Made by a program: the position numbers and the translations under genes. DNA of 64,000 nt from Halobellus rarus (GTDB lineage: Archaea; Halobacteriota; Halobacteria; Halobacteriales; Haloferacaceae). The stretch spans positions 62,001 through 126,000 of the forward strand of contig NZ_JANHDI010000011.1 in assembly GCF_024494595.1 (NCBI RefSeq), in the 5' to 3' direction. Of the stretch, positions 16,431 to 52,684 are shown piece by piece (the stretch's first letter is position 1; the number at the start of each line of letters is the position of its first letter). Under the pieces are notes generated by a model. The model ran no database searches and had not been told where the DNA came from. It saw only the letters and a program-made list of their open reading frames with translations.

Positions 16431-16452
16431 AGTTCGCCATACCGTGGTGTTC

Positions 16453-17298: not shown

Positions 17299-17494
17299 CG
17301 GGGTTTCAACGCCGATAGATCCAATCCCTACAGTCCGTCTCTGTCTCAGTTCCCTCACGCGAGATGGTGGATCGAGCGGCGAATCAGTTGAACGGCTCAC
17401 TTCGAGCTCTCACAGAACTGCGAGTGTACGCACGATCAGGTGAGAGTAGATCAACCGCAGCGTTGAATAGAGCGAGTATTGTAGGTACGTATCA

Positions 17495-32737: not shown

Positions 32738-32986
32738 CCACCGGCCCTCCACCGTCCTGCGAGCCCGGTCTCGGTGCCTCTACTCTGGGGGAAGCGGCGT
32801 CGTGAGGTGGTTGCAGCATTCGTGCTTCACCGACGGCGGCGGGGTACTTCAAAGTGGTCGTGATTATTGGGGTAATCAGGATCACTCCTTGTATTCGAAT
32901 TATCGGCAGTATTCGAGGGTTTGGAGCCTCCTGACACCGAATTCCAATACTAAGCGGGACTATGTATTGTATATCGCTATACGAAA

Positions 32987-33385
32987 TCAGTCCCACCCAT
33001 ATCCCCACTCGTCAAGTTTCTCTCGAACGAGACTGGGGTTCTCTTGGGCGACGGCCATCGCCGCCTCTGTAATGTCTGTTTTGTAGACATCCTCCCCAAA
33101 CTCTTCTTCCATCTGGGTGAGGAGGTCGTCAATACCCGCTTCAATGTGGTCTCGAAGGAAAATCGGTCGCTGGGTCCGGCCGTCTTTGACCCCATCGCGC
33201 GAGTGGATGTAGGGGAGCGAGCGGTTCTGGGAGGAAGCCGTGGTGCCTGTCGAAAGGTCAGTCTCGGTCACTGCAAGATCTGTCTCAGTTCCCTGACTAC
33301 CTGTCTCCAGCTCAGGTTCTATTTCAGCCTCCGTCTCCTCGGAGGCGTCGTCAGCGAAGGGATCGTCTGCAGAGCCCTGTTTCAT
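32987..33385 (-). CDS. Small acidic protein downstream of ParA
   Basis: A 132-residue protein: a Glu/Asp/Thr-rich, probably disordered first half, then a folded C-terminal half (RPIFLRDHIEAGIDDLLTQMEEEFGEDVYKTDITEAAM) that looks helical. Its start overlaps the parA stop by 4 bases. That position fits the DNA-binding partner or centromere adaptor of a partition operon, although no HTH can be pointed out. The family is not recognised. Confidence 0.6.
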   Translation of the reverse strand: MKQGSADDPFADDASEETEAEIEPELETGSQGTETDLAVTETDLSTGTTASSQNRSLPYIHSRDGVKDGRTQRPIFLRDHIEAGIDDLLTQMEEEFGEDVYKTDITEAAMAVAQENPSLVREKLDEWGYGWD

Positions 33386-35475: not shown

Positions 35476-36633
35476 TTAAAATACCTCTTGGGCAAACTCA
35501 GTGGTAATTTCTGACCGCCCCTCATTTGCGGCTTCGTCAAGAATACGACTACAAACAGAGAGAACTTGTCGAATATTCCCCTGTGAACGCTGGAGAATCA
35601 GCTCAAGGCTCTCTTTCGTAAATGGGCGGATAGGACGACCAGATCCAGCTGCCGTCCGTTCCCGATCAAGGTAGTCCTCAACAAGTTCGTAGAGGTTTTC
35701 TGCTGTTAACGGGCGAAGAGCGACCTCCTGACCGATACGTTCGCTAAAGGCATGGTACTCACTCATAACGTCTTGCCAAACTTCAGGTGCGCAGCCAAAC
35801 AACATAGAGAGCCCGGAACTGTTTTGATCCATAAGGTGCCGGATACTGTTTAATGTCGCTTGCTCGTTCTTTGGCGTGAGACGGGCGATGCTCTCGAACT
35901 CGTCAACGAAGACAAAGACACCCGTAGACCCAAGGTCAAGAAGGAGATTTTTCAACGCTGTGAAGGCCCGAACACCCATCGTATCGTCGTCAAGGGCGCT
36001 GTGAATCTCCATTTCTTTGCGTTGCTCATACCGAATCCCTTCGGCTGTAAGCCACTGCCACGCATAGAGATTCGTATCCTCATAGACCATATGGATGATT
36101 GCCCGTGCAAAGTCAGCAAACTTTGTTACATCGCTCAATTGTCTGATTGCCTCCGGAACGATCTCAGAAAGAAGTACATCACCCTCATCAATCAGTGACT
36201 GCATCGCGTTCGCGGTGTCTGGGGTGGCCTCAGTAATCTCACAAGTAATTGTGGCAAGATACTCGTAGGCGAGTTCTTGGAGTCGATTGAATCCAAGATC
36301 GTAGATAAACTCGTGATAGATGTCGAGGAATCCCTCGCCAGGTTGTGCAACGTAACCGACAACGACATCGTCGCGGTCACGGAGCAACGATCGCGTGTAC
36401 TTGAGGGTATGGGACTTCCCATTTCCGTACTTTCCAGTAACGACGAGATGTTTCGATTTCCCCGTCGAGAGCATCGACGAGACAGTCGAGCTAATCTGCT
36501 TTGTGACGTGTGGTTGGCCACAATATATTTCTGGATCTGCGGCAGGAACAGGGCTGTACGGGAAGGGGTTCGCTTCAAGATCGAATTGTGAGTAGTCCTG
36601 CTGTTCGTCCGTAATAGTGAATGTATCGCTCAT
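35476..36633 (-). CDS. AAA+ ATPase (ORC/Cdc6-like), TGT-operon component
   Basis: A 385-residue ATPase. It starts with NPFPYSPVPAADPEIYCGQ, an N-terminal motif of conflict-system AAA ATPases. Walker A GKYGNGKS lies at residues 67-74, Walker B VFVFVDEFESI near 240, a sensor-like LFGCAPEVWQ near 285, and a helical lid with GNIRQVLSVCSRIL near the C-terminus. The start at 36633 shares one base with the stop of the upstream wHTH gene (TAATG). It probably uses ATP to load or move the TGT-type enzyme on DNA. It is not obviously related to bacterial DpdB, and homology searches are needed to name it. Confidence 0.75.
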   Translation of the reverse strand: MSDTFTITDEQQDYSQFDLEANPFPYSPVPAADPEIYCGQPHVTKQISSTVSSMLSTGKSKHLVVTGKYGNGKSHTLKYTRSLLRDRDDVVVGYVAQPGEGFLDIYHEFIYDLGFNRLQELAYEYLATITCEITEATPDTANAMQSLIDEGDVLLSEIVPEAIRQLSDVTKFADFARAIIHMVYEDTNLYAWQWLTAEGIRYEQRKEMEIHSALDDDTMGVRAFTALKNLLLDLGSTGVFVFVDEFESIARLTPKNEQATLNSIRHLMDQNSSGLSMLFGCAPEVWQDVMSEYHAFSERIGQEVALRPLTAENLYELVEDYLDRERTAAGSGRPIRPFTKESLELILQRSQGNIRQVLSVCSRILDEAANEGRSEITTEFAQEVF

Positions 36634-37529
36634 TATGTATTCTCCTGGGTGAAGGTAACGTCGCGGTCGTGCACGGCGAGATAGTAGTACTGTTTGTCGA
36701 ACTGTTCGACACCAGCCATTACTTGCTGACTGGATTGGGAAGTCGAGACGAGTCTGTCCTCGTCTGCAAGCGTGATCGCCTTGATACCAAGCGCTGAATC
36801 TTTCGCAGCCGTATCCATTGGAGCCCCTGAAAGCTCGAGTTTCCCGACGTTCTGTTGGCAAAGGCTGAGAAGCGCTTCGTCGAACGCCTCTCGGGAGCAG
36901 CCAAGCCGTTCACACATCTCTTCTCGGAGTCGAGGAATCGAGAGATAGCGTTGGCGGAGATCGACACCGGCTGTCTGTTCTAGTTCATCATAGACTTTCA
37001 GTAATACAAACGGGAAGTGACTGGGAATCGAATCTTGTGCTGCGGGATAGTAGCTTCCCGTAAAGGCATTGCGCTGAACGCGGCCAAGTCGCTCAGCCCA
37101 ATCTCCAACTACCTCGACACTCGTCTGATTGAACGAATATGGTGTGAACTCTTGTTTGCTCTCAAGATACTCTAGGAGTGTCTCAAGGTCGGCGTGTTCT
37201 GTGTCGTCAACAGCGTCGACGAACATTCCGTAGTGAGGACTGTGTGTCGAAAGGATCTGACTTACCTGCGTCCAGTCTTCGGTCCGGATCGCACCGAGAA
37301 AACGACTTCCGATCTCTGTAGTCGTATATGTTGGCTCAACGCCGGTGTCGTCTTCTGCGAGGAGTCCGATTCGGCTAGCCTCTAGTATTGTTTCACGTGC
37401 CCGCCGATGACTGACATCAAGCGCGTCTTCAAGTTCTGCGGTCTCTTTAGATCGGTCCGCACAGGCGTGCGTGAGTTCGACGAGACGGCTCAGAGTGACC
37501 GGCCGAACGGTCGCTCGTTCGTCGCTCAC
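36633..37529 (-). CDS. Winged-helix protein between the TGT and the ATPase
   Basis: A 298-residue protein. The N-terminus has a winged-helix pattern (TAELEDALDVSHRRARETILEASRIGLL, then TTTEIGSRFLGAI). The rest is helical with no catalytic signature. Its start overlaps the TGT stop by 4 bases and its stop touches the ATPase start, so all three are tightly coupled. Size and position resemble those of the wHTH protein before the large ATPase at 62324-63187, so the two could be equivalent adaptors. Family not recognised. Confidence 0.65.
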   Translation of the reverse strand: MSDERATVRPVTLSRLVELTHACADRSKETAELEDALDVSHRRARETILEASRIGLLAEDDTGVEPTYTTTEIGSRFLGAIRTEDWTQVSQILSTHSPHYGMFVDAVDDTEHADLETLLEYLESKQEFTPYSFNQTSVEVVGDWAERLGRVQRNAFTGSYYPAAQDSIPSHFPFVLLKVYDELEQTAGVDLRQRYLSIPRLREEMCERLGCSREAFDEALLSLCQQNVGKLELSGAPMDTAAKDSALGIKAITLADEDRLVSTSQSSQQVMAGVEQFDKQYYYLAVHDRDVTFTQENT

Positions 37530-38560
37530 GTCAGCCTCCGTACTTGCTGCTTTGCGGTTTGATAGGCACGCTGGGTGACCTCATTGCCTTGGAAGCGGAG
37601 GTCAAGGTACTCCTCAATGTCCCAGTCAGATTCGGAAACATAGCGGAAGCGACGAAGTTCAGTCGCGAGTGCCCAGAGATTATGCTGGGTGAGTGCAGTT
37701 CGGTCCTCACGAATGTCATCAAGCGTCCGCTGTCCACAAATGGGGCAAGGACATGGAAGACGCTCCAAGGATTCGATATTCCGGAGTTCTTCTCCTCCAA
37801 ACCCAGGAATGAGGTAATTTCGATTCCCAGCACTCCGGATAAACGCCGATGAGTCGAAACTGTCAACACCGAGGTAGAGGAGAAGTGGCTGGTAAACGAG
37901 TCCACCAAGTCCGTACACATGGAGGTGTTTGTCGGTTGCTTTTCTCGCCGAAAGTATTAATTTTGTAACCTTTTTGTAGTCGGTCCGAATTGGGACCATA
38001 CTCCCGAGCGCATATCCGTCGAAATCGCCGTGCTGTTCCAGATACCGGATGTTGTTCCGGACTGTTTCTGGGTCATAACCATGGACGCTTGCCAAGAGAT
38101 AGCCACTGCCGTCGTGTTTGTCACTCGCTTCAAGTGCGTAATCAGTACTCTGCTCAACTCGACGCTCGTTCTCAGCATCTCGGTTGTCGCGTGCAAGCGG
38201 AATGTCGACAGTCCCGTAGATGTCGGCGTCAAGGCGCCGTTGTGTCTCGAGCGTTTTTGCTGGGGTAGTGTCCACATCTCCGGATGTGAAATCAAACCCA
38301 CCACTGTCTGCAAACACGATCGTATCCTCGGGGACACCCATTTCGTCTCGGAGCGAAACGTCGCTCGTCAGTCGGTCCCACATAGGTTCTCGATTTCGGA
38401 TCGACCGAGCGTTGATCATCGCCGCCGAAAATTCTGGGATGGTGCCTGCGTATGCTGGGGTGTTGTCACTCGATCGCTTGCCTAAATTGCGCACCGGGAA
38501 GAGCACCGGTGTCTGCAACTCCCTTCTGGGAAGATCGAGTTTTCGTTGTCTGTATAACAT
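37526..38560 (-). CDS. dpdA: TGT-fold transglycosylase, DpdA-like (short form)
   Basis: A 344-residue protein with the whole tRNA-guanine transglycosylase core. IVFADSGGFDF holds Asp85, the base-recognition or acid position of TGT; VYGLGGLVYQPLLLYLGVDSFDSSAF holds Asp236, equivalent to the nucleophile in GIDMFDCV; the zinc site is C270xC272xxC275...H293. No PUA domain follows, unlike archaeal tRNA TGT. Such a lone TGT domain beside preQ0 synthesis and helicase genes is typical of DpdA, which places 7-deazaguanine in DNA in bacteria. It is the first gene of the wHTH/AAA operon; TTATATAA lies about 33 bases upstream. The DNA target is inferred from context. Confidence 0.75.
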   Translation of the reverse strand: MLYRQRKLDLPRRELQTPVLFPVRNLGKRSSDNTPAYAGTIPEFSAAMINARSIRNREPMWDRLTSDVSLRDEMGVPEDTIVFADSGGFDFTSGDVDTTPAKTLETQRRLDADIYGTVDIPLARDNRDAENERRVEQSTDYALEASDKHDGSGYLLASVHGYDPETVRNNIRYLEQHGDFDGYALGSMVPIRTDYKKVTKLILSARKATDKHLHVYGLGGLVYQPLLLYLGVDSFDSSAFIRSAGNRNYLIPGFGGEELRNIESLERLPCPCPICGQRTLDDIREDRTALTQHNLWALATELRRFRYVSESDWDIEEYLDLRFQGNEVTQRAYQTAKQQVRRLT

Positions 38561-38686: not shown

Positions 38687-41587
38687 CTAGTACTCCTCAA
38701 ACGCTGCCTGACTCGGTTCGTCTTCAACGCGCCGGCAGAGTTCATCAACCACTTCTGGTTGAAGCGTCTGGACTCCCTCAACGTAGCGAGCAAAGTTCTT
38801 CATATAGACGCCCTTCAGGCCAACAACGATCGTCCCGTGTTTCTTCGCATCCTCCGTGCGTGCAGGGACGGACTCAATATTATCGAACTGGTCTTCGACG
38901 AGTTCGCGATTGAATACGACGCCGATATGATCGGCGCGAACTTCCTGTACCATCTCGTCGATATCGATACTCGTGTAGTAGTCTTTCCCGAGGGTGAAAA
39001 AGACAATATCGTAGTCACTCTCGTCGAGAACACGGCGAAGGTCCGCCTGAATATGGAGTCTTTCGGACCGCTCTCGGATCTCTCCAACGTTCATCGAACT
39101 GAACGTCACCTCGTAGGGTGGGAGGAGTTCAGCTTCCGCAACGAGACCGAAGCCAGCACTGATGAAGTACCGCTCAACGTTGTGCCCGTTCGAGCGAAGG
39201 CGACGAACCGCATCCTGGACATACTGTTGCTGGCGACCGGTATAGAGATCGCGAGCCGCGATTCCGGGCACATTATCGCGAGCAAGGAGGTCTTCGCGGG
39301 AGAATCGGAGCGTCTCGTCGGCATCGAAGACGGGCGCTCCCTCTGGGATTTCTTTGGAGCCGGAACACTGATCGATCACAAGGACATCTAGCTCGTCTGT
39401 TTCGATCTCTGGAGGGTAGGGGAGGAAATCAGAGCCGACAGCATAGTTTTCACCGCAGATTTCGAGCACCTGCTGTCGGAGTTCGTCGGGGTCGCTGTGC
39501 GTGATGACTTCGCAGTCGTTGTCACGCACTGCGGCAGCGATGTCATCGTCAAGCGACCCCGATTCCGTTTCTACAAACAGATACTGATACCGAGCTGCTT
39601 GCTCTGCAAGATTGGCTTTCATCCGATCCGGAGCGAATGAGATCATCGAGGGGGCTTCCTCCCACCATTCATTCACGCCGTTGGCATCGAGAACACCCAG
39701 TTCGGCGACGGGGAGGTCGTGCGTCTGTGTCCAGAATTCAGGATGGGCCTCTCGGAGGTAGTCTTCGACGGTGTCATATCCACTAAGACTTGCTGTCCCC
39801 TTCGTCGCAACGAGGATCTTCGGGAGATCGTCTTCGAATTCATCGTAGAAGCGGCGTGTATTATGAAAGCCCCGCCGCCGGTTCCGATCGTTCCCTCGGA
39901 AAATACAGACCTCAATACCGTGTTCGGCACAGATCGGACAGTCGCATTGCTCCCACGGACGTTCACGGAGGACGGTTTGATACTCCTCCAAGAGGTCTTC
40001 ATCACCGACCCAGACTGCATACTCACGGACAAGTGCCCAGACGCGGTCGTAGTCGCTGACGGCATCGACATCGTCAAGAGCCGTCGTTGCGAGCGGGAAC
40101 TGCTCAAATATATTGGCAGCAGTGTTCAAAATTTCATCATACTCTGCAAATGGAATCGGGGCTTCAGGATCGTCATCCCGGAGCAGTTTGACGAGATTGC
40201 CACGGAGATTGTCGCTAAAGCTCGCTTGGAGTTCACGGCCGTACTCGAAATCCTCCCGGAATGCTGCCTCAACGTCAGCAAGGAGACGAACATCAAACTG
40301 CTCGTCGTGTCGGTGCTCTCGGAGATACTGTCTCGTTGCTGGGAGGATATCTTTAGCAAGCGCGTGCCAATCCTCGAGTGCCTCGCGGATCGAATCTCCG
40401 GCGTCATAAGCCCGGAGCGCCACGAGAGTTTCGCGGCCTCGAAGCGATGTCTCGACAGCCTCGTTTAGATCGTCTCGACTCGAAGGGTATCGGACACGAA
40501 TCGCATCATACCGCTCGTCGTGATCGAGCCGATAATTCTGACCGCCGGTCCACGCCGATCGGAGCATACTGGCACTATCAAAACTCGTCATCCCCGACCG
40601 CCCAACTGTCTCGAATCCTTCTGTTTTCGCGAATCCGAAGACGTGCGAGTCAACGCGTATGTTGTGTTCGCGCTCGAACGTCTTCACTGTCTTCCCCACG
40701 TTCTTGACGATAGCACGGACATCGTGGATCGGACTGCCCGCAACACCGCCGATCCCCAGATAATTGTAGCCGATCTCCAAGACGTCCTCAGCGGCCGCAG
40801 CGTAGGAGTCAGGGTCCCAGCCTTGGATTGCGACCATCAGGCGGAAGGGGTAGTCCTGCTCTTCGTACAGATCGTACATCTCCCGGGCGTTTCGTAATGT
40901 GAGCTCGTACCGAAATCGTGCATCGTCCTCACGGTAGACTGCTCGTTGATCCTGCGCAAGTCGCGCGAGCACGGTGTCGACGTCGCCCCGGAAGTCTTCG
41001 GAAGAAAATGACTCGACATCAGCGTCGAGGCCCGTCCGGATGGTTGGTTCGTATTCATCGACGTACATTGGCCACTCAGCAGGCCATTCGTCGATCATCA
41101 CGTCGACGACATCCGTGATCGTATCCGGGATGTCACTCTTAGAGAAGTCGCTAGTGAAGGCTCGTTCATCGAGATAGAGGCGGCCTTCCTCCTTTCCAGA
41201 ACCGAGGACCAGATGGTCTATCGTGACGCCGACAGTAACATCAAGCGTCTCGTAGAACTCTAGCATCTCTCTGTTTCCGTACGGTGGGAAGGGTTTGGAC
41301 TTGTAGCCCCAGGCGCCACAGTCACTGATCGTTGGGAGCCAGTCCGGTACGGAGAGTACCGGGTCATCATAGACACCGTATTCCGCGAGTCTCTCAGCTT
41401 TCCGGTCCGTCTCTTCGACCTGCTCCCGAGAAATAAGTACGCCATCAATAGGCGTTGTTTCTGGATCGAAGATATCCCAGATGTAGTCTAAATCTCGCTC
41501 CTGGCGGTCAAGCGTGGACAGTTCGTCGTGCTCGAAATCATAGTGAGCGTCGACGGCATCGTCCCACTCAGGAACGTAGAATCTCAC
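38687..41587 (-). CDS. Large TGT-fold protein fused to a YaaA/DUF6884-like domain
   Basis: A 966-residue fusion. The N-terminal TGT-like half has LPTISDCGAWGY (Asp89, aligned to DSGGF), VTIDHLVLG, YNYLGIGGVAGSP, HVFGFAKTEGFETVGRSGMTSFDSASML (Asp337, aligned to the TGT nucleophile) and the zinc site C548xC550xxC553...H575. The C-terminal domain, about residues 733-880, has LVIDQCSGSKEIPEGAP, ARDLYTGRQQQYVQ, ERYFISAGFGLVAEAELLPPYEVTF, as in YaaA/DUF6884 proteins. The start is a GTG at 41587. It is divergent from the preQ0 operon. It may be the main DNA transglycosylase, with the second domain helping in base handling or nitrile conversion; both roles are inference. Confidence 0.75.
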   Translation of the reverse strand: MRFYVPEWDDAVDAHYDFEHDELSTLDRQERDLDYIWDIFDPETTPIDGVLISREQVEETDRKAERLAEYGVYDDPVLSVPDWLPTISDCGAWGYKSKPFPPYGNREMLEFYETLDVTVGVTIDHLVLGSGKEEGRLYLDERAFTSDFSKSDIPDTITDVVDVMIDEWPAEWPMYVDEYEPTIRTGLDADVESFSSEDFRGDVDTVLARLAQDQRAVYREDDARFRYELTLRNAREMYDLYEEQDYPFRLMVAIQGWDPDSYAAAAEDVLEIGYNYLGIGGVAGSPIHDVRAIVKNVGKTVKTFEREHNIRVDSHVFGFAKTEGFETVGRSGMTSFDSASMLRSAWTGGQNYRLDHDERYDAIRVRYPSSRDDLNEAVETSLRGRETLVALRAYDAGDSIREALEDWHALAKDILPATRQYLREHRHDEQFDVRLLADVEAAFREDFEYGRELQASFSDNLRGNLVKLLRDDDPEAPIPFAEYDEILNTAANIFEQFPLATTALDDVDAVSDYDRVWALVREYAVWVGDEDLLEEYQTVLRERPWEQCDCPICAEHGIEVCIFRGNDRNRRRGFHNTRRFYDEFEDDLPKILVATKGTASLSGYDTVEDYLREAHPEFWTQTHDLPVAELGVLDANGVNEWWEEAPSMISFAPDRMKANLAEQAARYQYLFVETESGSLDDDIAAAVRDNDCEVITHSDPDELRQQVLEICGENYAVGSDFLPYPPEIETDELDVLVIDQCSGSKEIPEGAPVFDADETLRFSREDLLARDNVPGIAARDLYTGRQQQYVQDAVRRLRSNGHNVERYFISAGFGLVAEAELLPPYEVTFSSMNVGEIRERSERLHIQADLRRVLDESDYDIVFFTLGKDYYTSIDIDEMVQEVRADHIGVVFNRELVEDQFDNIESVPARTEDAKKHGTIVVGLKGVYMKNFARYVEGVQTLQPEVVDELCRRVEDEPSQAAFEEY

Positions 41588-41719
41588 AGATTCAATTCAC
41601 CGACTTATTCTTTTCTCGCTCCACTATATGAATGTCGTCTTCGGTCGACTTATGCTAAAATATTGTTATACCAGTATTCTACCGATAATACTTTAGGCAT
41701 ACTCGTAGAATACCCGTTC
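41588..41719. promoter_or_regulatory. Divergent promoter between the TGT fusion and the preQ0 operon
   Basis: A 132-base A/T-rich spacer. ATAATACTTTA at about 41685-41695 fits as the TATA box for the GTG at 41720. CATATAGTG (minus, about 41622-41631) or AAAAGAATAA (minus, 41605-41614) fits the fusion gene. The shared spacer suggests that the modifying enzyme and its base supply are controlled together. Confidence 0.5.
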
Positions 41720-42172
41720 GTGTCTATTGAACTGCAATCCAAGTCCATACTCGCGGACACGGATGAACGAACCCTCTACATTGGCGAGGATCGACCGATC
41801 CGAATCAGCACAGGGCATCGCCTACTCCACCACGATGGTAAATGCAGTCGGCCACACGGGCACAACTACGAAATTTCTGTCCGTGTAACTGGCACACTAT
41901 CTGAGGAAGGATGGGTCGTCGACAAAGGAGAGGTGACGGATATTATTGACGAGTGGGACCATCGGTTCCTACTCGAAGAGGGCGATCCCCTGATCGAGGC
42001 TCTCGAAGCCAGCGGAGACGCCGACAGTCTCGTCGTTCTTGAGCACCCGCCAACAGCAGAAGTGATGGGTCTCATTCTCGAGGAGCGACTTCTCGACGAA
42101 CTCCCCGGTGAGATCTCTGATGTCTCAGTCTCGGTGCGTGAAACAGCCGAGCTTTGTGCCAGCAGCTACTGA
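41720..42172 (+). CDS. queD: 6-carboxy-tetrahydropterin synthase
   Basis: A 150-residue protein with the QueD/PTPS motifs: RISTGHRLLHHDGKCSRPHGHNY (catalytic Cys plus the His-rich zinc site), DEWDHRFLLEEGDPL and HPPTAEVMGLI. It makes 6-carboxy-5,6,7,8-tetrahydropterin from dihydroneopterin triphosphate, step 2 to preQ0. An upstream in-frame start at 41528 lies inside the divergent gene, so the GTG at 41720 with its TATA box is preferred. The stop shares one base with the queE start. Chromosomal archaea need preQ0 for archaeosine in tRNA; this copy is in a mobile island. Confidence 0.9.
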   Translation: MSIELQSKSILADTDERTLYIGEDRPIRISTGHRLLHHDGKCSRPHGHNYEISVRVTGTLSEEGWVVDKGEVTDIIDEWDHRFLLEEGDPLIEALEASGDADSLVVLEHPPTAEVMGLILEERLLDELPGEISDVSVSVRETAELCASSY

Positions 42173-42945
42173 TGCCGGTCAACTCGACAGCCAGCGAAAC
42201 GGCCGCAGACCGGTCAGAAAGGGATACGCTCCCGATTAACGAGCTCTTCTACTCGCTGCAGGGCGAGGGAGAACTCGCCGGCGTCCCCAGTGTCTTCATC
42301 CGCACAAGTGGATGTAATCTTCGTTGTTGGTTCTGCGATTCGTATCACACATCGTGGGAGCCCACACACGGACAAATGGACCTCGAGGAAATTATTGCCG
42401 AGGTGCAGTCCTACGAAAAGGCGAACCACGTCGTCCTCACAGGTGGGGAACCGCTAATCCACGATCGATCAGTCGACCTGCTTCAGCGACTCGACGAACT
42501 CGGGTATCACACGACCGTTGAAACCAACGGCACAATCTATCGCGACGCGCCGATCGACCTCGCGAGCATCAGTCCAAAGCTTGCATCCAGCGCTCCCACC
42601 GCTGAGAAAGATCCGAAGGGAGATGGCGAATGGGCCGATCGACACGAGAAGCGGCGGATCGACACTGACGCACTTGCAGAACTTGTCGATGCCTACAGCT
42701 CGCAATTGAAGTTCGTTATCACCGATAGTGATGATTTGCCAGAAGTCAAGCGGCTGCTGAAGCAACTTCGGAGCGTGGCATCGACCACGATCCTCGATTC
42801 CGACGTACTCCTGATGCCCGAGGGCACGACTCGAGAAGCACTCGATGAGTCGCGTAATAGTGTCGCAGAGCTCGCAATAGAACACGGTTATCGCTACACG
42901 CCGCGACTCCACGTGGATCTCTGGAACGATGCTCCCGGTACATAA
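42172..42945 (+). CDS. queE: 7-carboxy-7-deazaguanine synthase (radical SAM)
   Basis: A 257-residue radical-SAM enzyme. INELFYSLQGEGELAGVPSVFIRTSGCNLRCWFCDS gives the CxxxCxxC cluster at Cys48, Cys52 and Cys55; VVLTGGEPLIH is the GGE motif; ASISPKLASSAP and QLKFVIT follow as in QueE. It converts carboxy-tetrahydropterin to CDG, step 3 to preQ0. The ATG at 42172 overlaps the queD stop (TGATG). folE follows after 3 bases. Confidence 0.92.
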   Translation: MPVNSTASETAADRSERDTLPINELFYSLQGEGELAGVPSVFIRTSGCNLRCWFCDSYHTSWEPTHGQMDLEEIIAEVQSYEKANHVVLTGGEPLIHDRSVDLLQRLDELGYHTTVETNGTIYRDAPIDLASISPKLASSAPTAEKDPKGDGEWADRHEKRRIDTDALAELVDAYSSQLKFVITDSDDLPEVKRLLKQLRSVASTTILDSDVLLMPEGTTREALDESRNSVAELAIEHGYRYTPRLHVDLWNDAPGT

Positions 42946-42948: not shown

Positions 42949-43554
42949 ATGAGTCAGCACTCGCAGATCACACAATCAGACAGCAAAGATAGTATCGACC
43001 AAGAGAAAGCACAGAAAGCGACGCGCCTCCTTCTGGAAGCAGTCGGTGAAGATCCAGACAGGGCCGGACTTACTGAGACTTGGCAACGGCGTGTCCCAGA
43101 AGCCTTCGCAACACTCACAGAGCGGACTCGGGACAGCGAAAAGCCCACAATGCAGACATTTGATGCCGAGGAGGGCAACCTCGTCATCAAAACAGGAATT
43201 CCATTCTATTCGCTTTGCGAACATCACCTGCTTCCATTCTATGGGACGGTGGATATTGCCTACCGGGCCGGGTCAGAGGTCGTTGGGCTCTCGAAACTGA
43301 CGCGGTACGTCCGCTGGCAATCACACCAACTCACAATGCAGGAACGGCTTACAAATGACATCGCATCCGGACTTGCTGACGAATTGGATGCACCAATGGT
43401 CACCGTGGAAATGAACGGAATCCACCTTTGCGAAGCGATGCGTGGGATCGAAACAAAAAGTATGACTACCACTCGGACAGCGGTCGGCGAGCCGACCGAG
43501 ATCGAGCGCGACCAATTCCAGGCAGCGATCGATAGGGATGGTGATCGGCGATGA
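42949..43554 (+). CDS. folE: GTP cyclohydrolase I, type IA
   Basis: A 201-residue protein with zinc ligands Cys90 and His93 in SLCEHHLLPF and Cys161 in IHLCEAMRGIE, plus GLSKLTRYV and the QERLTNDIA helix. This is the bacterial-type FolE that starts preQ0 synthesis from GTP. Its polar N-terminus is about 20 residues. Haloarchaea, as far as I know, normally use the COG1469 (FolE2/MptA) enzyme for this step, so a type IA copy inside the operon suggests transfer of a self-sufficient pathway. It overlaps queC by 4 bases. Confidence 0.92.
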   Translation: MSQHSQITQSDSKDSIDQEKAQKATRLLLEAVGEDPDRAGLTETWQRRVPEAFATLTERTRDSEKPTMQTFDAEEGNLVIKTGIPFYSLCEHHLLPFYGTVDIAYRAGSEVVGLSKLTRYVRWQSHQLTMQERLTNDIASGLADELDAPMVTVEMNGIHLCEAMRGIETKSMTTTRTAVGEPTEIERDQFQAAIDRDGDRR

Positions 43555-44252
43555 GCAGTGAGAAGCAGCGTGCAGTCATTCTCGCGTCAGGAGGAATGGA
43601 TTCTGCGACTGCAGCGGCAGTCGCACGGGACCGTGGCTATGAACTCTATCTCCTCCACACGTCATACGGCCAGCGCACGGAGACCAAGGAGTACGAGTGT
43701 GCGACGGCACAAGCCGACCACTTCGACGCCGCGGACTTCCTTCACCTCACGGCCGATCACCTCTCGAAGGTTGGGGGCTCCTCACTCACAGATGAGGAAA
43801 TGGACGTCGAAGAAGCCGATCTCGAATCGGAGGAAGTCCCGACCTCCTACGTTCCGTTCCGTAACGCGAACCTCCTCTCGATGGCCACGGCGTACGCGGA
43901 GGCAAACGACTGCGACGCCGTCTTTATGGGCGCACACTCCGAGGACTTCTCCGGCTACCCCGACTGCCGTCCCGAGTTCTTCGACGCGTTCCAGCAGGTC
44001 GTCGACGTTGGCACAAAAGACGGCACAACGATCAGTATTGAGGCCCCCTTCACCGAATGGTCAAAGACTGACATCGCTGAGAAGGGTGCCGAACTCAATG
44101 TCCCGTACGATCTCACGTGGAGCTGCTACCGCGACGAAGAGCCCGCCTGCGGGACGTGTGACGCGTGTGCATTCCGTCTGCAGGCCTTCCAGAATATCAG
44201 TATGCGCGACCCCATTGAGTACGCTGAGCGGCCAGACTACACCGAAGACTGA
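43551..44252 (+). CDS. queC: 7-cyano-7-deazaguanine (preQ0) synthase
   Basis: A 233-residue PP-loop ATPase with SGGMDS at residues 13-18, TSYVPFRNANLLSMA, MGAHSEDFSGYPDCRPEFFDAF, and the C-terminal zinc site with four Cys (SCYRDEEPACGTCDACAFR). It turns CDG and ammonia into preQ0, the nitrile base used by TGT-family enzymes. It ends the queD-queE-folE-queC operon, in which all neighbours overlap or nearly touch. Confidence 0.93.
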   Translation: MSSEKQRAVILASGGMDSATAAAVARDRGYELYLLHTSYGQRTETKEYECATAQADHFDAADFLHLTADHLSKVGGSSLTDEEMDVEEADLESEEVPTSYVPFRNANLLSMATAYAEANDCDAVFMGAHSEDFSGYPDCRPEFFDAFQQVVDVGTKDGTTISIEAPFTEWSKTDIAEKGAELNVPYDLTWSCYRDEEPACGTCDACAFRLQAFQNISMRDPIEYAERPDYTED

Positions 44253-45258: not shown

Positions 45259-47232
45259 TTACGTATAGTAGGAAGGATAGAAGGAGCGCCGCGGGATCTC
45301 TTGGAGGCTAGTGAGGTCGACTTCGTCGGCCTCGGAGAGTTCCCAGACGTGGTCGAAGAAGTCGATCGCGGCGGCGACGAAGCTCGAATTTTCAGTGTAG
45401 ACGCCGCATTCAGGGTTCCAGTTGTAGCTGTTCTCCATAAAGTTCGCCGAACCTAGAAGCGCAGAGCCTTCAGTCGGATTCCCGATCGTCTGGAGTTTTG
45501 CATGAATTCCGAATTCAGCGAGATCAGTTTCGTCCGTCTCACTTGTGATTCGTTGATACGTTTTGTATCGGGAGTACGTTCTGATAGTGACGTTTTCGCG
45601 GTTCTCCTCGAGATCGCCGAGAAGGTTGTCGCGAAGGCGCTCCCACTCCCAGCGTTGTTTCGTATGTCGTGTGAGGAGACGAAGTTCGTAGCCATCTCGG
45701 AGGAGGCTACGGAGTTGGGAGGTATACTTAGAGAAAGTATCGTCGTCGTACGGAGTCATAATGCGGACGACACGTTCCTCGAAATCGCGCTCTTGTCCGC
45801 GTGCGAAGAGTCGGTCGGTCATCTCCGTGAACCGACGCAAATCGTTATCCCGCTGGTCCTTCCAGCGCTTCAAACGCGCACGTTCACGACGCAGGGCGGG
45901 CTGGTCGTCGACATATTTCTCCATCTGTTCCTTGCCGAGGGCGTCGGGGTCCGGAAGGGTGTAGACAAAATATGTGGGTGCGACGACGTCATCATCGACG
46001 CTCATAGCGACTGATTCTATGACGTCCGCTCGCATACGCGGTGTTTCGGCAGGGGTAACATCAGTGAGGGTATCACGCCACGAGAATCGCGTGTGAAGGG
46101 CTTCAAAGAGTCCGTCGCGAAAGGTGTCATAGCGGTCGGTCCCTTGGGGAGCGGATGGTACGGAGTCGAATGTGAGGAGCAGGTTATTCCGGAGCGAGCA
46201 TTCGACACCAGGAAGATCCGAGACGGCCCGGTAGATGGAATATGGTTCGAGATCCAAGGTGTCGGTGAGTGAGGAGAGAGAGATTGAGTGAAGACAGGGG
46301 TGAGCGTTGATGGTAGCAATAAGATCGAGTACTGTCGTGACGGACTCACTTGCAGGGTCACCCGGGAACGTGTCTGTAACGAGGTGAGCATCAACAGTCG
46401 GGTCTTCGCGGGCGACTGTGCGCTCCTCAGGATCGAGAGCGGTCTCAAACGTGTCGGCTTCTTCTAAGACAGCCGTTCGAGTGTCCTCAATCGCATTGGC
46501 GAGTTCGACAGCAGGTGTGCGCTCTGGAGAGTGGCGCTTGTTGGTGGCGAGTGCATCGAGTTGGGTAGTCTGCGTGACGTCCACGGGTGAGACGGTAGTG
46601 CCGGTATGAGTCGTTACGATACGAGCGATGAGGTGGGGGTCATCGAGTGTCGTGAGCGCAGTGGCGAGTGCAATTGCTGCAGTTGGGAGTGTCGAGGTTT
46701 GTTCGAGGCAATCAATCGTCTGCGTGATCGTCTCGTGATCGAGGATGACGCCCTCCGGGTAGAGTTCGATGAAGGCAAGTGAGGCGAGAAGTGGCGTGAT
46801 AAAAACCTCGTCTGCTGTGTCCCGGACGAGTGTCTCAAGTTCGCTTCGCGGGAGCCGATCTGTATCGGCGGTGGCAAATTCACGGAGTAATTGCTGGACA
46901 CGAGGTAGATAACAGGCAGCGACAAGACGAATCGCGTCGCCGGGTTGCTCGGTTGCGAGGACGAATCGACCGCGGTCAGTCAACTTGTGATCATCAGTGA
47001 TGAGTCCGAGTTCGGCCAAGAGGAAGTAGTGCGCCTCGGCGACGGTCTCGAGAGCGCGTTCGTCGTTTGTCTGGAGGACAGCCGTTATATGATGTGGCCA
47101 GAGCGCGTGTGAGAGTTCAGTCTCGGTCGCGACGGCACAGACGGCGAGGTAGAGACTCTCGGCTGAGATGCCCCAGAGTGCTTCCGGGGAGCGCGTCCGC
47201 AGATCGTAAATCGCGTCTGGAAGATTACTCAT
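45259..47232 (-). CDS. Phospholipase-D-fold nuclease-like protein, DpdK-like
   Basis: A 657-residue protein. The N-terminal 150 residues look like a winged-helix domain (GLITDDHKLTDRGRFVLAT). The C-terminus is a PLD domain with FGIHAKLQTIG...ALLGSANFMENS (HxK from His577, then GSxN) and an upstream RVVRIMTPYDDDTFSKY strand. One HKD motif implies dimer formation, as in PLD nucleases. The start at 47232 (ATGAGTAA) overlaps the helicase stop by 8 bases and is preferred over 47250 or 47280. PLD proteins end dpd (dpdK) and DISARM (drmC) loci, where they are thought to act in restriction. Confidence 0.75.
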   Translation of the reverse strand: MSNLPDAIYDLRTRSPEALWGISAESLYLAVCAVATETELSHALWPHHITAVLQTNDERALETVAEAHYFLLAELGLITDDHKLTDRGRFVLATEQPGDAIRLVAACYLPRVQQLLREFATADTDRLPRSELETLVRDTADEVFITPLLASLAFIELYPEGVILDHETITQTIDCLEQTSTLPTAAIALATALTTLDDPHLIARIVTTHTGTTVSPVDVTQTTQLDALATNKRHSPERTPAVELANAIEDTRTAVLEEADTFETALDPEERTVAREDPTVDAHLVTDTFPGDPASESVTTVLDLIATINAHPCLHSISLSSLTDTLDLEPYSIYRAVSDLPGVECSLRNNLLLTFDSVPSAPQGTDRYDTFRDGLFEALHTRFSWRDTLTDVTPAETPRMRADVIESVAMSVDDDVVAPTYFVYTLPDPDALGKEQMEKYVDDQPALRRERARLKRWKDQRDNDLRRFTEMTDRLFARGQERDFEERVVRIMTPYDDDTFSKYTSQLRSLLRDGYELRLLTRHTKQRWEWERLRDNLLGDLEENRENVTIRTYSRYKTYQRITSETDETDLAEFGIHAKLQTIGNPTEGSALLGSANFMENSYNWNPECGVYTENSSFVAAAIDFFDHVWELSEADEVDLTSLQEIPRRSFYPSYYT

Positions 47233-50200
47233 TATCGCTCGCCTCGACATCTCGCTGGGTGAGTGACAGTCCAGTGTCAAGGAGAGTCATAAGGTCGTCC
47301 TTCGCGATCGTTTCGGGGTCGTTCTGATTCTCACAGCCGTACTGGTAGATACAGAACGGACAACCGTTATCACAGTCACATTCAAATGCGTCCTCAATGA
47401 GATCGATCGCAGTGTCGAATTTCTCGCGCGTGTCACCAGATCCCATCGTGAGGAGGACGGTGACGCCGCTGCCGCCGGTTTCGTTGTCGAAGACGTAGGT
47501 TCCGTCCTCGCCCAGCGATTCGGGGACGGCACGCACGCCGACGCCGCCGATGTACTGGAGCGCCATACGGACGCCGTGCGAGAAGGCGTGCTCAAGGTCT
47601 TCGTCGTCGAACTGGATACGGACAGCCTTCGTGTCGAACTCGGTCGCGAGGCGGACGACGTCCGTGTCCTCAGTCGAGTGTTCGGGATGACGCATACAGT
47701 ACGCCGTCTCGTCGTCGCGTGCGATGACGCCGTCACAGTTCTCCTTCCCACAGAGTTCGAAGACGTTCGGTAGCGGATCGGATCCGCCACCGACGTAGTG
47801 GGCTCTGAACTGACGGACGGAGGACTTGATGGTGACGTCTCCGTAGTCGAACCGCCCCACGGGCTCGCCGTCGTCGGTCGTGATGGTGAACGCTCTCTCT
47901 GGGTCGGGGTCGAACGCGGTAACGTTCGTTTCAGTGGGTGCGTAGGTGTCCTGGACCTCCGAATCCGACTGGTACAGCCGAGTCGGGAGGAGGGGGTCGC
48001 CGTTCGGGAGTTGACCGAGTACGAGGTCGGACTTGTACGCGGTGACGCGCTCGGGGACGATCGTCTTGAGGCGCTTGAGGTCGGAGCCGCACTCTTCGCA
48101 GGGGCCTTCACCGAGGTCGTATTCGGCGCCGCATGTCGGACAGATCGCGGCGGTGCTCTCGAGCTGCGAGGTCTGATAGGAGTGGGCGCGCACGCCGGTG
48201 ACGACGTAGCGCTGGTTGTCCGAGTGGAGATAGGCGGCGCCGGGATGGAGTTCGGAGAGCGCGATCCTGATTGGCCGAGAGTGCAAGTCGGCGGTCACAG
48301 ACTCGAAGTCTTCACCGATAAGTTCGTATTCGACGGTATCCTCGACGGAGCGGAGACTGAACGGCGTGGTGCTGTGTTCTTCGAGGAACGACCCGTAATC
48401 CATCCGTGCAAGTCGGTCCAAATACTGGTTCAGATTTGCGCTCCGACTCTGTAGTCGATCACGCTCGTCGCGCTGCTCAACGCGATTATCCGAGTTCTGT
48501 CGGCGGCGGTTCCGCCGGCCACGTGACTCCAGATTGAGTTCGTTGAGCTGTGTCTGGACCTCATCGAGTTCGTCGAGGATGTCGTCCTCGAAGTCGAAGT
48601 AGCTCGCGACGAACTCGTCGACGAACGTCGTCATCGCCTCCTCGATGACGTCCTCGTGTGCGTCGACCGCAGAGACGACACGACCGTCGCACTCCGAGCG
48701 ACTACACGGCCCCTCGTAGCCGGCCTCGTGCTTCCGACCGCAATCGCGACAGTAACTGAAACCGAGGATGTCCTCAATCCAGTCGCGAACCTCGGGTCGA
48801 TGCTCCTCGTACGCCGCCTTGAGCGTCTGGAGGGGAGCTTCCTCATCGACGAACTGGATCGCTTCGTTCTCGCTCGCGAGGAGCGCGGTAAAGGTCACGA
48901 TGTCGTTTGGCCGCGGTTCACTCCGCGGGACGAGGTCGTCCTCACAGTAGAGTTCATCGACGACGTCGCTGCTCTCGCGACGCCACGGAATCCAGTATTC
49001 GGTGGCGAAATAGTCGAGGATTGCCCACGTCAGCGAGATGCGAAGCACCTCCTCGTTCGTCTCGTTGAGTGGGACGGGTTGGGGTTCGGCCTGAATGAGT
49101 TCGTTCGGCTGTTCGTAGTAGTAGTAGTCGATCGGGTTGCGCTGGCTGATCGAGTGGACGAGTGACGACCCGGACTGTCGGCCAGCGCGACCGATCCGTT
49201 GGAGGTACGAGTTCGTGTTTGGCGGGGTGCCGTAGAGGAGGAGCGCATCGAGGTCACCGATGTCCATCCCCACTTCCATCGCCGGCCCAGAAGAGAGGAA
49301 GTTGGGGTAGCGCCCCTCCCGGAACTGATACTCGATGCGGCGGCGTTCGTCCTTCTCCGTGAGTCCGAAGTAGGCACGGGAGACGAGCAGTAGGGGGTCC
49401 GAGTAGTTCACGCGGTAGGCCGTGAGGTCGAAGTGAGGGTGCGTGAACTCGCTTCGGGCCTCGGAATCAGCGCTGAACGTGACCGTGTCGAGGTCCGGGT
49501 CGTGGTCAGTGAAGACCTCATCGAGCGTCGAGTAGAACGACTCTGTTGCGGGAACGTACGTAATCGGCGTCTCCGCGTCGACGGTCGTGCAGCAGACACA
49601 GGATTCGTCGAATCCGATGAGATATCCGGAGTCAGTCTCGATGCGACGGAGGACGTCCTGTTCGATGAGGGATTCGACGTGTCGACCCGCATCCTCGATA
49701 TCGTCACTGAGCGAATCGACGTACTGCTTGCTCTGCTCGTTCAACGCCTCGATGACGGCTTTCTCACCCGCGTCGAGGTCACTCCAGTCGATGTCAAGGC
49801 TGACGTCAAGTAGGCCATCGGAGGGGAGGTGATCACGGCTCCGCCAGCGGTTGTTGTAGCGCCCGCGAAGGACGCGTGCCGCGACTTCCTCCTCCAGGAA
49901 GTCATCAACGGACTGCCGATAGCCCGTCATGGCTTCCAGCAGCCCACCATCGCACTCAGTGAGCATATCCTCGTACTCCACGGCGCCCTCGACGACCGTG
50001 GACTGAAGGTCAGCGAGCGAGACCCAGTCGTCGTCGGCCTCATCGAGCGTGTCGACGACGAGTTGCGTGACGAAGAGCGTCTGCTCGGGTTCGGTGAAGT
50101 TCCGGTTGAGTTCCTTCATATCCGACTGGCTGTCGGCGAAGGAGAGCATCTTCGCCTCCCGGAACGAGTCCGGGTCGTCGACGTCCGCGATCTCGCGGAG

Positions 50201-52684
50201 GAAGTACTGCGCGGTCGTGACGGCGGTGTTCCCGGGCCCGCGAATCATCGACTCGTAGCGCGAGGACTTTCGGTAAGTCTTCCGGGGGTCGTAGCAGGGG
50301 ACGGCGCCGTGGAACGACGAGGGTTTGCGAATCTGTCCGAGTTCGTCGACGAGTTTGTACTCGCGGAACCCGCGAACTGTCGGCGAGATCGCGGGGTCGT
50401 CACAGCGACACTCGGCACCCGGCAGGAGGTCGGTGTCGCAGTTCGAGCAGTGGTCAATCGCGTTGATGTCGAGCAAACCAGTGCGTGCGAACCGCCGTTT
50501 CCCGCAGTCGCAGGTGTTGGGCGGTTCTCCGAAATAGACGGCGTCACAATCCGGGTCTCTGCACGACCAGCCGAGGTAGCGCTTCGGACGGAGCATTCCC
50601 CCGCAACTGCACTGGTGGCCGGCCTCCTGCTCGCGGGCGTCCCCACAGTCCTCACAGTAGAGGACGGAGTCGTCGCTGAGCGGTTCGAGGTCGTGCGAGT
50701 GGCAGTTCTCACAGACGATCTCGGTCCCGGTCTCCAGCGTGACGTCACAGTCGGGGTTCCGACAGACGAGTTCGTCCTGATCGTCGCTGAGGACCATGAC
50801 GGTGTCGCAGTCTGGACAGTGAGTGATCCGGTCGACCTTCTGTCGATCGCCACACCCTGAGCATTCGTAGTAGGGACGCCAGACCGTCCGGATCGTCTCC
50901 GTTCCGCAACTGCACGTGTGGTCTTGGAAGTACTCGAAGCGCCCCTCGCCAGACGTGACGTTGAGTGGGGAGAGCCGTTCGCAGTCCGGGCAGAACCAGG
51001 ATTCGAGCGCCTCCTCACCGCAGTGGTTGCAGTAGGCGAGTTTCGTGACGAAGTGATGGCCGCACTGGGCGCACTCGGACTGCGGCGTGTCGTAGACGGC
51101 GGCACAGTTCACGCAGGTGTAGTAGCCGTCGAGCGGCCAGCTGAAGAGGTGAGCGCGGCTCTCGAGGACACCGGAGAGTTGACCGAGCGTGACGAAGTTA
51201 TCGACAAGTCGGGCGGCCTGGTCGTCAGTGAGGTCGTACGTCTCCGTGAGCGTCTCGCGAAGGTCCGCGGGCCGCTGCGCCTCCTGGTGAAGCGTCGTGT
51301 AGAGCGCGCGGACGATGTCGAGGTCGTCGTCGCGCTCGTCAAGGAGGGTGTCGTAGAGTCGGTCGCCGGCGATGCGCCGTCGCTCGTCGGCATCGGCGTC
51401 ACTGGGTAGTTCCCCGATGACGTCCGCGACGAGGGATTCGGCGGGCGTCCACTTCGATGGCGTATCGGCGAGCCGATCCGGGTCGGCAGTACGTTCGACG
51501 AACGGGGCAGGGAGATCGTCGGGGAGTTGGCACTCGAGCGTTCGTGGGTCCTCCTCGACGACAGTGATGTCCGCGTCCGTGAAGGGGTTAATGCGCTGGA
51601 AGATCGCACGCTTGTTCTCGACGGTCGCACTGGCGCCGACGAGTCGGAGGTCGTCGTCCACGTCATCATCGAGTCCGAGCAGTGAACGACGAGAGCGGAG
51701 ATAGCGCCGCATAAGTGTCGCGGTGAACGAGCCGAAGAGCTCGGAGTACTCGTGGACCTCGTCGAAGACGACGTACTTCGGCTCCGTGACGAATACGGCC
51801 TGTTCGTCTTGTTCGTTGACATTGAACAGCCGATAGTTGACGGTGTCTGGATTGGTGAGAAGAATGTCGACTTCCGCGTCGACGATTTCCTCGCGCGTGA
51901 GTTCGATGAAGTCGAGGTCGACGCCCATTTCGGCGGGCGAGTCGTGCGTGACGCGATAGCCGTCCTCGGTCCGTTCGACCGTCAGCGAGGACGAGCAGTT
52001 GCTGCAGGGACACTCGAAGTACTTGAACGAGGTGTCGAGATACGAGTAGGCGTCCGGGTCGTTGTGCGGGGTGTCACCGTCGAAGATCCCGACGGTGATC
52101 CGGTCGGTACCGTTTCGCGTCTCGTTGAGCGTGGAGAGATACCCGATGAGACGCTTCAGTTGGTCCTGTGCGAGCGCTTTCGTCGGATAGGTGAGGACGC
52201 ACTTGACACTCTGCGGATCAGCGTCGTGATAGCCGGCTTTCGCCTCACAGATGTACTGGAGAATGGGGATGAGCCAACTCTCGGTCTTGCCGCGGCCCGT
52301 CCCAGCGGTGACGAGGGTGTGGTTGTCGGCGAGCATCGCGTCCACGGTATCCTCTTGGAACGCGTAGAGGCGCTCGAAGCCAGCCTCGGAGAACGTCCGA
52401 ACGATGTCGTCGTGGAGGCCGTCGGGCGCGTCGTCGGCGATCGACGGCCGACTTTCGGCGAACGCCGGCCACGGAATGTCGCTCTGCCGTGGCAGATCGA
52501 GCGCCTGGAGGAACGGACCGCGCGTCCGCATAAACTCGGGGAGTCGATCGTGGAGCGACTGCTCCGTCCCGCCCTCGTACCGCGAGATGACGTCCTTGAG
52601 CGTCGCGGTGTTCTGGCTGGCGACGTAGTGGTCGCCGTATGTGCGCTTCAGGTCTTCAGCATGCTCGAGTGTGTCGTGGCTCAT
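47225..52684 (-). CDS. Giant DEAD-box/DUF1998 helicase 1, DpdJ-like
   Basis: A 1819-residue SF2 helicase. Motif I AGTGRGKTES is at 127-136, motif Ia TYPTKALAQDQLKR near 165, motif II FDEVHEY near 307, motif III GASATVEN near 347 and motif VI QRIGRAGRQSG near 1180. A CxxC pair (FECPCSNC) interrupts the first RecA domain. Between the two halves lies a long array of zinc ribbons (over ten CxxC/CxxCG pairs, about residues 530-800). The C-terminus is DUF1998 with ECDCDNGCPFCIYQYGC. It overlaps the second helicase by 4 bases and the PLD gene by 8. Related helicases (DpdJ, DrmA/DrmB) track along unmodified DNA. Confidence 0.8.
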   Translation of the reverse strand: MSHDTLEHAEDLKRTYGDHYVASQNTATLKDVISRYEGGTEQSLHDRLPEFMRTRGPFLQALDLPRQSDIPWPAFAESRPSIADDAPDGLHDDIVRTFSEAGFERLYAFQEDTVDAMLADNHTLVTAGTGRGKTESWLIPILQYICEAKAGYHDADPQSVKCVLTYPTKALAQDQLKRLIGYLSTLNETRNGTDRITVGIFDGDTPHNDPDAYSYLDTSFKYFECPCSNCSSSLTVERTEDGYRVTHDSPAEMGVDLDFIELTREEIVDAEVDILLTNPDTVNYRLFNVNEQDEQAVFVTEPKYVVFDEVHEYSELFGSFTATLMRRYLRSRRSLLGLDDDVDDDLRLVGASATVENKRAIFQRINPFTDADITVVEEDPRTLECQLPDDLPAPFVERTADPDRLADTPSKWTPAESLVADVIGELPSDADADERRRIAGDRLYDTLLDERDDDLDIVRALYTTLHQEAQRPADLRETLTETYDLTDDQAARLVDNFVTLGQLSGVLESRAHLFSWPLDGYYTCVNCAAVYDTPQSECAQCGHHFVTKLAYCNHCGEEALESWFCPDCERLSPLNVTSGEGRFEYFQDHTCSCGTETIRTVWRPYYECSGCGDRQKVDRITHCPDCDTVMVLSDDQDELVCRNPDCDVTLETGTEIVCENCHSHDLEPLSDDSVLYCEDCGDAREQEAGHQCSCGGMLRPKRYLGWSCRDPDCDAVYFGEPPNTCDCGKRRFARTGLLDINAIDHCSNCDTDLLPGAECRCDDPAISPTVRGFREYKLVDELGQIRKPSSFHGAVPCYDPRKTYRKSSRYESMIRGPGNTAVTTAQYFLREIADVDDPDSFREAKMLSFADSQSDMKELNRNFTEPEQTLFVTQLVVDTLDEADDDWVSLADLQSTVVEGAVEYEDMLTECDGGLLEAMTGYRQSVDDFLEEEVAARVLRGRYNNRWRSRDHLPSDGLLDVSLDIDWSDLDAGEKAVIEALNEQSKQYVDSLSDDIEDAGRHVESLIEQDVLRRIETDSGYLIGFDESCVCCTTVDAETPITYVPATESFYSTLDEVFTDHDPDLDTVTFSADSEARSEFTHPHFDLTAYRVNYSDPLLLVSRAYFGLTEKDERRRIEYQFREGRYPNFLSSGPAMEVGMDIGDLDALLLYGTPPNTNSYLQRIGRAGRQSGSSLVHSISQRNPIDYYYYEQPNELIQAEPQPVPLNETNEEVLRISLTWAILDYFATEYWIPWRRESSDVVDELYCEDDLVPRSEPRPNDIVTFTALLASENEAIQFVDEEAPLQTLKAAYEEHRPEVRDWIEDILGFSYCRDCGRKHEAGYEGPCSRSECDGRVVSAVDAHEDVIEEAMTTFVDEFVASYFDFEDDILDELDEVQTQLNELNLESRGRRNRRRQNSDNRVEQRDERDRLQSRSANLNQYLDRLARMDYGSFLEEHSTTPFSLRSVEDTVEYELIGEDFESVTADLHSRPIRIALSELHPGAAYLHSDNQRYVVTGVRAHSYQTSQLESTAAICPTCGAEYDLGEGPCEECGSDLKRLKTIVPERVTAYKSDLVLGQLPNGDPLLPTRLYQSDSEVQDTYAPTETNVTAFDPDPERAFTITTDDGEPVGRFDYGDVTIKSSVRQFRAHYVGGGSDPLPNVFELCGKENCDGVIARDDETAYCMRHPEHSTEDTDVVRLATEFDTKAVRIQFDDEDLEHAFSHGVRMALQYIGGVGVRAVPESLGEDGTYVFDNETGGSGVTVLLTMGSGDTREKFDTAIDLIEDAFECDCDNGCPFCIYQYGCENQNDPETIAKDDLMTLLDTGLSLTQRDVEASDNE

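What the first reader, a model, noticed from the sequence alone, without database searches (positions are those of the whole stretch)
38687..41587. TGT domain fused to a YaaA/DUF6884-like domain
The 966-residue protein keeps both TGT aspartates (Asp89, Asp337) and the CxCxxC...H zinc site. It then carries a C-terminal domain with CSGSK, ARDLYTG and FISAGFGLV...LLPPYEVTF signatures. A fusion of a base exchanger with this domain suggests a second reaction on the inserted base, for example nitrile processing as DpdC does, or release/recognition of the displaced base. It is divergent from the preQ0 operon, so supply and use look co-regulated.
Basis: partly seen in the sequence, partly recalled or inferred. 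Interest (0 to 1): 0.82.

Follow-up and report, generated by a model that had tools for sequence, protein, structure and literature searches.

The report
DNA-base-swapping enzyme fused to DpdC-like domain
A salt-loving archaeon carries an enzyme that appears to swap guanine in DNA for a 7-deazaguanine base, joined in one protein to a relative of the enzyme thought to finish that base, and it travels with a second base-swapping enzyme and a BREX-like ATPase; the parent defence system was already named in a 2025 preprint, whose main text does not describe this arrangement of the modification parts.

Summary
The 966-aa protein is DpdA (NCBIfam DpdA 277.5 bits, cut-off 200; best PDB match 7ui4, DpdA), with both catalytic Asp and the zinc site invariant in 15 homologues, joined to a DUF6884/YaaA-like domain (modelled alone, pLDDT 87.5; only strong fold match YaaA). 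It does not group with ArcS or TgtA, and the genome has its own TgtA and ArcS elsewhere. In a tree the C-terminal domain sits with stand-alone DpdC and bacterial reverse-order fusions (99/96), apart from the ordinary DUF6884 proteins common in haloarchaea. Of 391 Halobacteria genomes, 56 have DpdA: 31 fused, 24 with the same domain as next gene, one with a different short fusion. DpdB is absent (0 of 57 over cut-off). Instead, a second, apparently intact transglycosylase (37526-38560), in a tight operon with a 298-aa protein and a BrxD-like ATPase, co-occurs almost perfectly with DpdA (55 of 56 either way). The island fits BRIGADE, named in a 2025 preprint. Most likely preQ0 is inserted into DNA and converted to the amide by one protein. 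The chemistry of the fused domain and the role of the second transglycosylase are inferred.

The parts
38687..41587 (-). DpdA-DUF6884 fusion protein, 966 aa
   Evidence: ORF; NF041059 277.5 bits; PF21818; PDB 7ui4; 31 fused homologues
39818..41587 (-). DpdA (transglycosylase) region, residues 1-590: Asp89, Asp337, zinc C548/C550/C553/H575; matched to the DpdA model at 41177-41587, 40376-40984 and 39833-40069 with two inserts between
39398..39820 (-). residues ~590-730, predicted alpha/beta domain of unknown kind, seen in haloarchaeal long-form DpdA
   Evidence: full-length model pLDDT about 87 in this stretch; conserved HDLPVAE...EWW; no family hit
38690..39391 (-). DUF6884/YaaA-like, DpdC-clade domain, residues 733-966 (CxxxK, LYxG, SAGFG, PYEVTF); a separate gene in 24 other haloarchaeal genomes
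37526..38560 (-). TGT2: second transglycosylase, 344 aa, TgtA-like without PUA, Asp85/Asp236 and zinc C270/C272/C275/H293 conserved
   Evidence: Pfam TGT 91.3 bits; TIGR00432 134.5 bits (cut-off 350); alignment A6; co-occurrence
36633..37529 (-). 298-aa protein between TGT2 and the ATPase; weak HVO_A0261 N-terminal similarity
35476..36633 (-). BrxD-like ATPase (likely start at the internal ATG at 36633, overlapping the upstream stop)
   Evidence: PF10923 54.2 bits; NF033438 43.8 bits (cut-off 350); PADLOC BrxD
41528..42172 (+). QueD (the true start is probably downstream of the ORF start)
   Evidence: sequence, conserved neighbour
42154..42945 (+). QueE
   Evidence: sequence, conserved neighbour
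42949..43554 (+). FolE (GTP cyclohydrolase I)
   Evidence: sequence, conserved neighbour
43551..44252 (+). QueC
   Evidence: sequence, conserved neighbour
45259..47280 (-). PLD-family nuclease, 673 aa
   Evidence: PF13091; weak DrmC
47225..52684 (-). YprA-like helicase 1 (DruE/DpdJ-like), 1819 aa
   Evidence: 37% identical to helicase 2
52681..58203 (-). YprA-like helicase 2 (DruE/DpdJ-like), 1840 aa
58968..62327 (-). DpdH-like ATPase, 1119 aa
   Evidence: NF041065 59.9 bits (cut-off 450)

Best explanation
This is the modification arm of a haloarchaeal Dpd-like (BRIGADE) restriction system. QueD/QueE/FolE/QueC make preQ0. The DpdA part of the fusion exchanges guanine in DNA for preQ0 with its two aspartates, and the fused DpdC-type domain hydrates the nitrile to the amide (dADG) on the same DNA. 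DpdB is missing; the TGT2 / 298-aa / BrxD-like ATPase operon, almost always inherited with DpdA, takes its place, with the ATPase giving ATP-driven access or target choice and TGT2 acting as partner transglycosylase (perhaps as a heterodimer, as in eukaryotic queuine TGT; that comparison is from general knowledge). Unmodified DNA is attacked by the two YprA-like helicases and the PLD nuclease. Shown from sequence: DpdA identity, conserved active sites, fusion, co-occurrence, absence of DpdB. Inferred: that DNA is modified, that the product is dADG, the role of TGT2 and the ATPase, and the restriction step.
For: DpdA equivalog score and 7ui4 match. Grouping with bacterial DpdA and away from tRNA enzymes (100/99), while own TgtA (619 bits) and ArcS (834 bits) lie together on another contig. 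C-terminal domain on the DpdC side of the DUF6884 tree (99/96) and nearest the bacterial DpdA-fused domains (95/84). The domain is fused or adjacent in all 55 long-form DpdA genomes. Fusions of a DUF6884 domain to DpdA probably arose at least three times: C-terminal in haloarchaea, N-terminal in cyanobacteria and Paenibacillus, and C-terminal with a different DUF6884 branch in other archaea. DpdB over cut-off in 0 of 57 genomes. TGT2 and DpdA shared by 55 genomes, one exception each way. A preprint describes BRIGADE with the same restriction parts.
Against: The fused domain lacks the C-terminal extension of stand-alone DpdC and scores weakly against DpdC profiles. CxxxK and SAxxG are shared by DUF6884 in general, so they do not prove nitrile chemistry. 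The archaeal short fusions use a different DUF6884 branch, which could point to a DNA-binding rather than a catalytic role. The co-occurrence is counted over related genomes, mostly of one class. Nothing here shows that DNA of this organism is modified.
Confidence: 0.55

Rival explanations
1. The C-terminal domain does no chemistry: it is a YaaA/YfjM-type DNA-binding or base-flipping domain that presents the target guanine or reads the modified base, and the final base is dPreQ0.
For: YaaA is the only strong fold match; DUF6884 is common outside Dpd; the Pfam paper describes a DNA-binding cleft in DUF6884 and YfjM as a lesion interactor; other archaea fused a different DUF6884 branch to DpdA.
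Against: The window domain falls with DpdC, which the literature credits with dPreQ0 hydrolysis (PMC12839542); in 24 genomes it is a separate protein, which would be unusual for a mere appendage.
Confidence: 0.3
2. The domain makes another 7-deazaguanine product, for example an amidine or lysine adduct in the manner of ArcS.
For: ArcS is also a TGT paralogue carrying a second domain with a PCSxxK motif; the solved homologue of that domain, 2q07, appears at rank 8 in the fold search (E=0.032).
Against: Profile comparison of the two domains finds nothing; the fold match is not significant; no QueF, Gat-QueC or ArcS-type gene was seen beside the fusion.
Confidence: 0.08
3. The protein and TGT2 are tRNA enzymes, modifying host or viral tRNA as a defence.
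For: TGT2 is closer to archaeal TgtA than to DpdA.
Against: The fusion is a DpdA equivalog; TGT2 lacks PUA; the genome has complete TgtA and ArcS elsewhere; the neighbours are helicases and a nuclease.
Confidence: 0.05

Closest known systems
BRIGADE (Bell et al. 2025 preprint, PMC12458937)
   Same: Halophilic archaea only; 7-deazaguanine biosynthetic cluster; two YprA-like helicases; PLD nuclease
   Different: The main text does not contain the terms transglycosylase, TGT or YaaA, so the fusion, TGT2 and the BrxD-like ATPase are not described there; its supplement could not be read
Canonical bacterial Dpd (dpdA-K)
   Same: DpdA; DpdC-clade domain; DpdH-like, DpdJ-like and PLD genes; preQ0 genes
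   Different: No DpdB; DpdC-like domain fused and shortened; two YprA helicases; TGT2 and BrxD-like ATPase added
Bacterial DUF6884-DpdA reverse fusions (Nostoc, Allocoleopsis, Picosynechococcus, Scytonema, Paenibacillus plasmids)
   Same: Same two domains in one protein, related DUF6884 branch
   Different: Opposite domain order; no haloarchaeal inserts; annotated only as DpdA or Tgt
ArcS (archaeosine synthase)
   Same: TGT-type domain joined to a second domain
   Different: No detectable profile similarity of the second domain; tRNA enzyme with PUA
BREX-related capture (BRC) systems (PMC12839542)
   Same: TGT joined with BREX-like parts; in genome G131 the same module sits beside PglZ-like and HerA-like genes
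   Different: The authors report no DpdC homologue there; no PglZ or HerA gene was identified beside the window's module

Membership tests
DpdA | NCBIfam DpdA equivalog score above cut-off | tested here: met
   277.5 vs 200 bits
DpdA | two catalytic Asp and CxCxxC...H zinc site | tested here: met
DpdA | inserts preQ0 into DNA | not testable with these tools
   needs DNA nucleoside analysis
DpdC | phylogenetic grouping of the core domain with stand-alone DpdC | tested here: met
   99/96 branch, (long branches noted)
DpdC | full-length match to DpdC profiles, including the C-terminal extension | tested here: not met
   only about 106 of 312 positions, 25.9 bits; extension missing; so it is called DpdC-like, not DpdC
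DpdC | dPreQ0 to dADG activity | not testable with these tools
   needs an enzyme assay or DNA nucleoside analysis
DUF6884/YaaA fold | Pfam PF21818 above cut-off and YaaA-like fold | tested here: met
   32.5 vs 30 bits; 5caj E=2.4e-5
ArcS/TgtA (tRNA enzymes) | score above a tRNA family cut-off or grouping with them | tested here: not met
   fusion: TIGR00449 14.2 bits (cut-off 47.6); separate clade
BRIGADE | two YprA-like helicases, PLD nuclease, 7-deazaguanine cluster, halophilic archaeon | tested here: met
   nearest relatives are Halobacteria
BRIGADE | helicases fall in the BRIGADE clades of the YprA tree | not tested
   reference tree not at hand
Canonical Dpd | DpdB present | tested here: not met
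   0 of 57 genomes over cut-off

The most novel reading that the evidence does not exclude
A DpdB-free DNA modification machine in which two different, both active, transglycosylases (the DpdA-DpdC-like fusion and a TgtA-related TGT2) work as an obligate pair under a BREX-type ATPase, either as a heterodimer or each on its own strand or site, with insertion and nitrile hydration done in one protein; kept from haloarchaea to other archaea of the phylum.
Probability: 0.35. Interest if true: 0.75.

Novelty: new variant of a known kind. Interest (0 to 1): 0.58.

Why it matters
It ties the unexplained DUF6884/YaaA family to DNA 7-deazaguanine chemistry by repeated fusion, gives archaea a host-encoded (not only viral) candidate route to 7-deazaguanine DNA modification with a testable parts list, and points to a second transglycosylase plus BrxD-like ATPase as the probable replacement of DpdB. 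The 24 natural split versions make the domain testable in trans.

Tried and rejected
ArcS DUF5591 homology: hhalign found nothing, fold hit 2q07 only E=0.032, so not claimed. Full-length AlphaFold model: mean pLDDT 68, TGT core below 50, so used only for the 590-712 domain and as weak support for 7ui4. DUF6884 as a Dpd marker: rejected, 225 of 391 genomes have it. Viral relatives of the domain: none confirmed in IMG/VR or in the phage collection. A TGT tree without TgtA left TGT2 unresolved through long branches; one search is preferred. Second TGT genes in Paenibacillus and Nostoc are not orthologous to TGT2 (20-27% identity; the Nostoc one lacks the zinc site), so the two-TGT pattern in bacteria is not claimed to be the same. 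Intein in a longer homologue: L017 has a beta-rich-looking insert, not an intein, by inspection only. The primary Dpd papers (PMC10164549, PMC4801273, PMC6207457) are not held, so what is said of DpdA/B/C biochemistry comes from later papers that cite them.

Full report
Observation. The ORF at 38687-41587 (-) encodes 966 aa. It scores 277.5 bits against the NCBIfam DpdA equivalog (cut-off 200) and matches the solved DpdA 7ui4 with E=1.5e-38, with Asp89, Asp337 and the C548/C550/C553/H575 zinc site in register. These residues are invariant in 15 homologues. Relative to bacterial DpdA it has two inserts and an additional predicted alpha/beta domain at about residues 590-730 of unknown kind. Residues 733-966 hold the DUF6884 match. 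Modelled alone (pLDDT 87.5), this part has a single PDB fold match below E=0.001, E. coli YaaA.

Not a tRNA enzyme. In a tree of transglycosylase domains the haloarchaeal proteins form one clade (98/95) within the DpdA side (100/99), away from TgtA and ArcS. The same genome has a full TgtA and ArcS side by side on another contig.

What the C-terminal domain is. DUF6884 is common in Halobacteria (225 of 391 genomes), so its presence alone says little. In a tree of these domains, however, the window's domain falls with stand-alone DpdC from classic dpdA/dpdB islands and with domains fused to bacterial DpdA (99/96), apart from ordinary haloarchaeal DUF6884 (long branches are present, so the branching should be taken with care). 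The domains on both sides share CxxxK, LYxG-like, SAxxG and PYxxT-like motifs, and the DpdC side has SAGxG where ordinary haloarchaeal DUF6884 has SAKHG. The window domain lacks the C-terminal extension of DpdC and scores poorly on DpdC profiles, so it is called DpdC-like rather than DpdC. Two stand-alone DpdC genes used for comparison were confirmed against DpdC profiles (287 and 470 bits).

Recurrent coupling. Of 391 Halobacteria genomes 56 have DpdA. In 31 the domain is fused, in 24 it is the next gene, split close to residue 733, and one (G131) has a short fusion with a different DUF6884. Cyanobacterial and Paenibacillus plasmids carry the fusion in the reverse order. Four archaea of the same phylum outside the class carry a 564-580 aa fusion whose DUF6884 belongs to the ordinary branch. 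At least three fusion events are therefore likely.

Missing DpdB and a second transglycosylase. DpdB reaches its cut-off in none of 57 genomes; two have a weak sub-threshold match. Directly downstream of the fusion lies TGT2 (37526-38560), with the catalytic Asp and zinc residues conserved and no PUA, then a 298-aa protein and a BrxD-like ATPase, with overlapping reading frames. TGT2 is found in 56 genomes, 55 of them DpdA genomes; the single DpdA genome without it has DpdA at the end of a contig only a few kb long as far as seen (Fisher p=6e-65, not corrected for relatedness). In 36 of 41 loci read, TGT2, the 298-aa gene and the ATPase lie in the same stretch as DpdA. The same triplet recurs in the non-halobacterial archaea.

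System. Two YprA-like helicases (37% identical), a PLD nuclease, a weak DpdH match and the preQ0 genes fit BRIGADE, which a 2025 preprint reports only from halophilic archaea; its main text does not mention a transglycosylase or YaaA. In G131 the modification module sits beside a PglZ-like gene and a HerA/FtsK-like gene, so it may be exchangeable between restriction modules.

Mechanism. Literature text credits DpdA with dPreQ0 synthesis, DpdB with the ATPase step of insertion and DpdC with hydrolysis of dPreQ0 to dADG (PMC12839542). By homology the fusion would do the first and last of these in one chain, and the TGT2/298/BrxD-like operon would replace DpdB. The identities and co-occurrence are computed; the chemistry and the division of labour are inferred. 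Divergence from the preQ0 operon is kept in 13 of 41 loci, so co-regulation is plausible but not general.

Noticed in passing
window 37526-38560: Second transglycosylase almost perfectly co-inherited with DpdA, in a tight operon with a 298-aa protein and a BrxD-like ATPase
   Followed up: yes
L065 (G131) 2920-17368: Short DpdA-DUF6884 fusion, TGT2, 298-like, BrxD-like and preQ0 genes next to PglZ-like and HerA-like genes: possible BREX-related capture system that does contain a DUF6884 domain
   Followed up: partly
L130 5701-7821 (Deinococcus taeanensis plasmid): DUF6884 fused N-terminally to a very divergent TGT-like region with DCGA, FDGS and CNCPAC, near dpdE
   Followed up: partly
L017 10001-13477: Fused homologue with a ~190-aa beta-rich-looking insert at residue ~185
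   Followed up: partly
window 39398-39820: Conserved alpha/beta domain (HDLPVAE, EWW) between DpdA and DUF6884, no family match
   Followed up: partly
L010 13007-19177: TGT2 operon on the opposite strand with a second set of QueD/QueE/QueC beside it
   Followed up: no
window 31505-34221: Integrase-like and ParA-like genes beside the island, which lies on plasmids in several relatives: likely mobile
   Followed up: no
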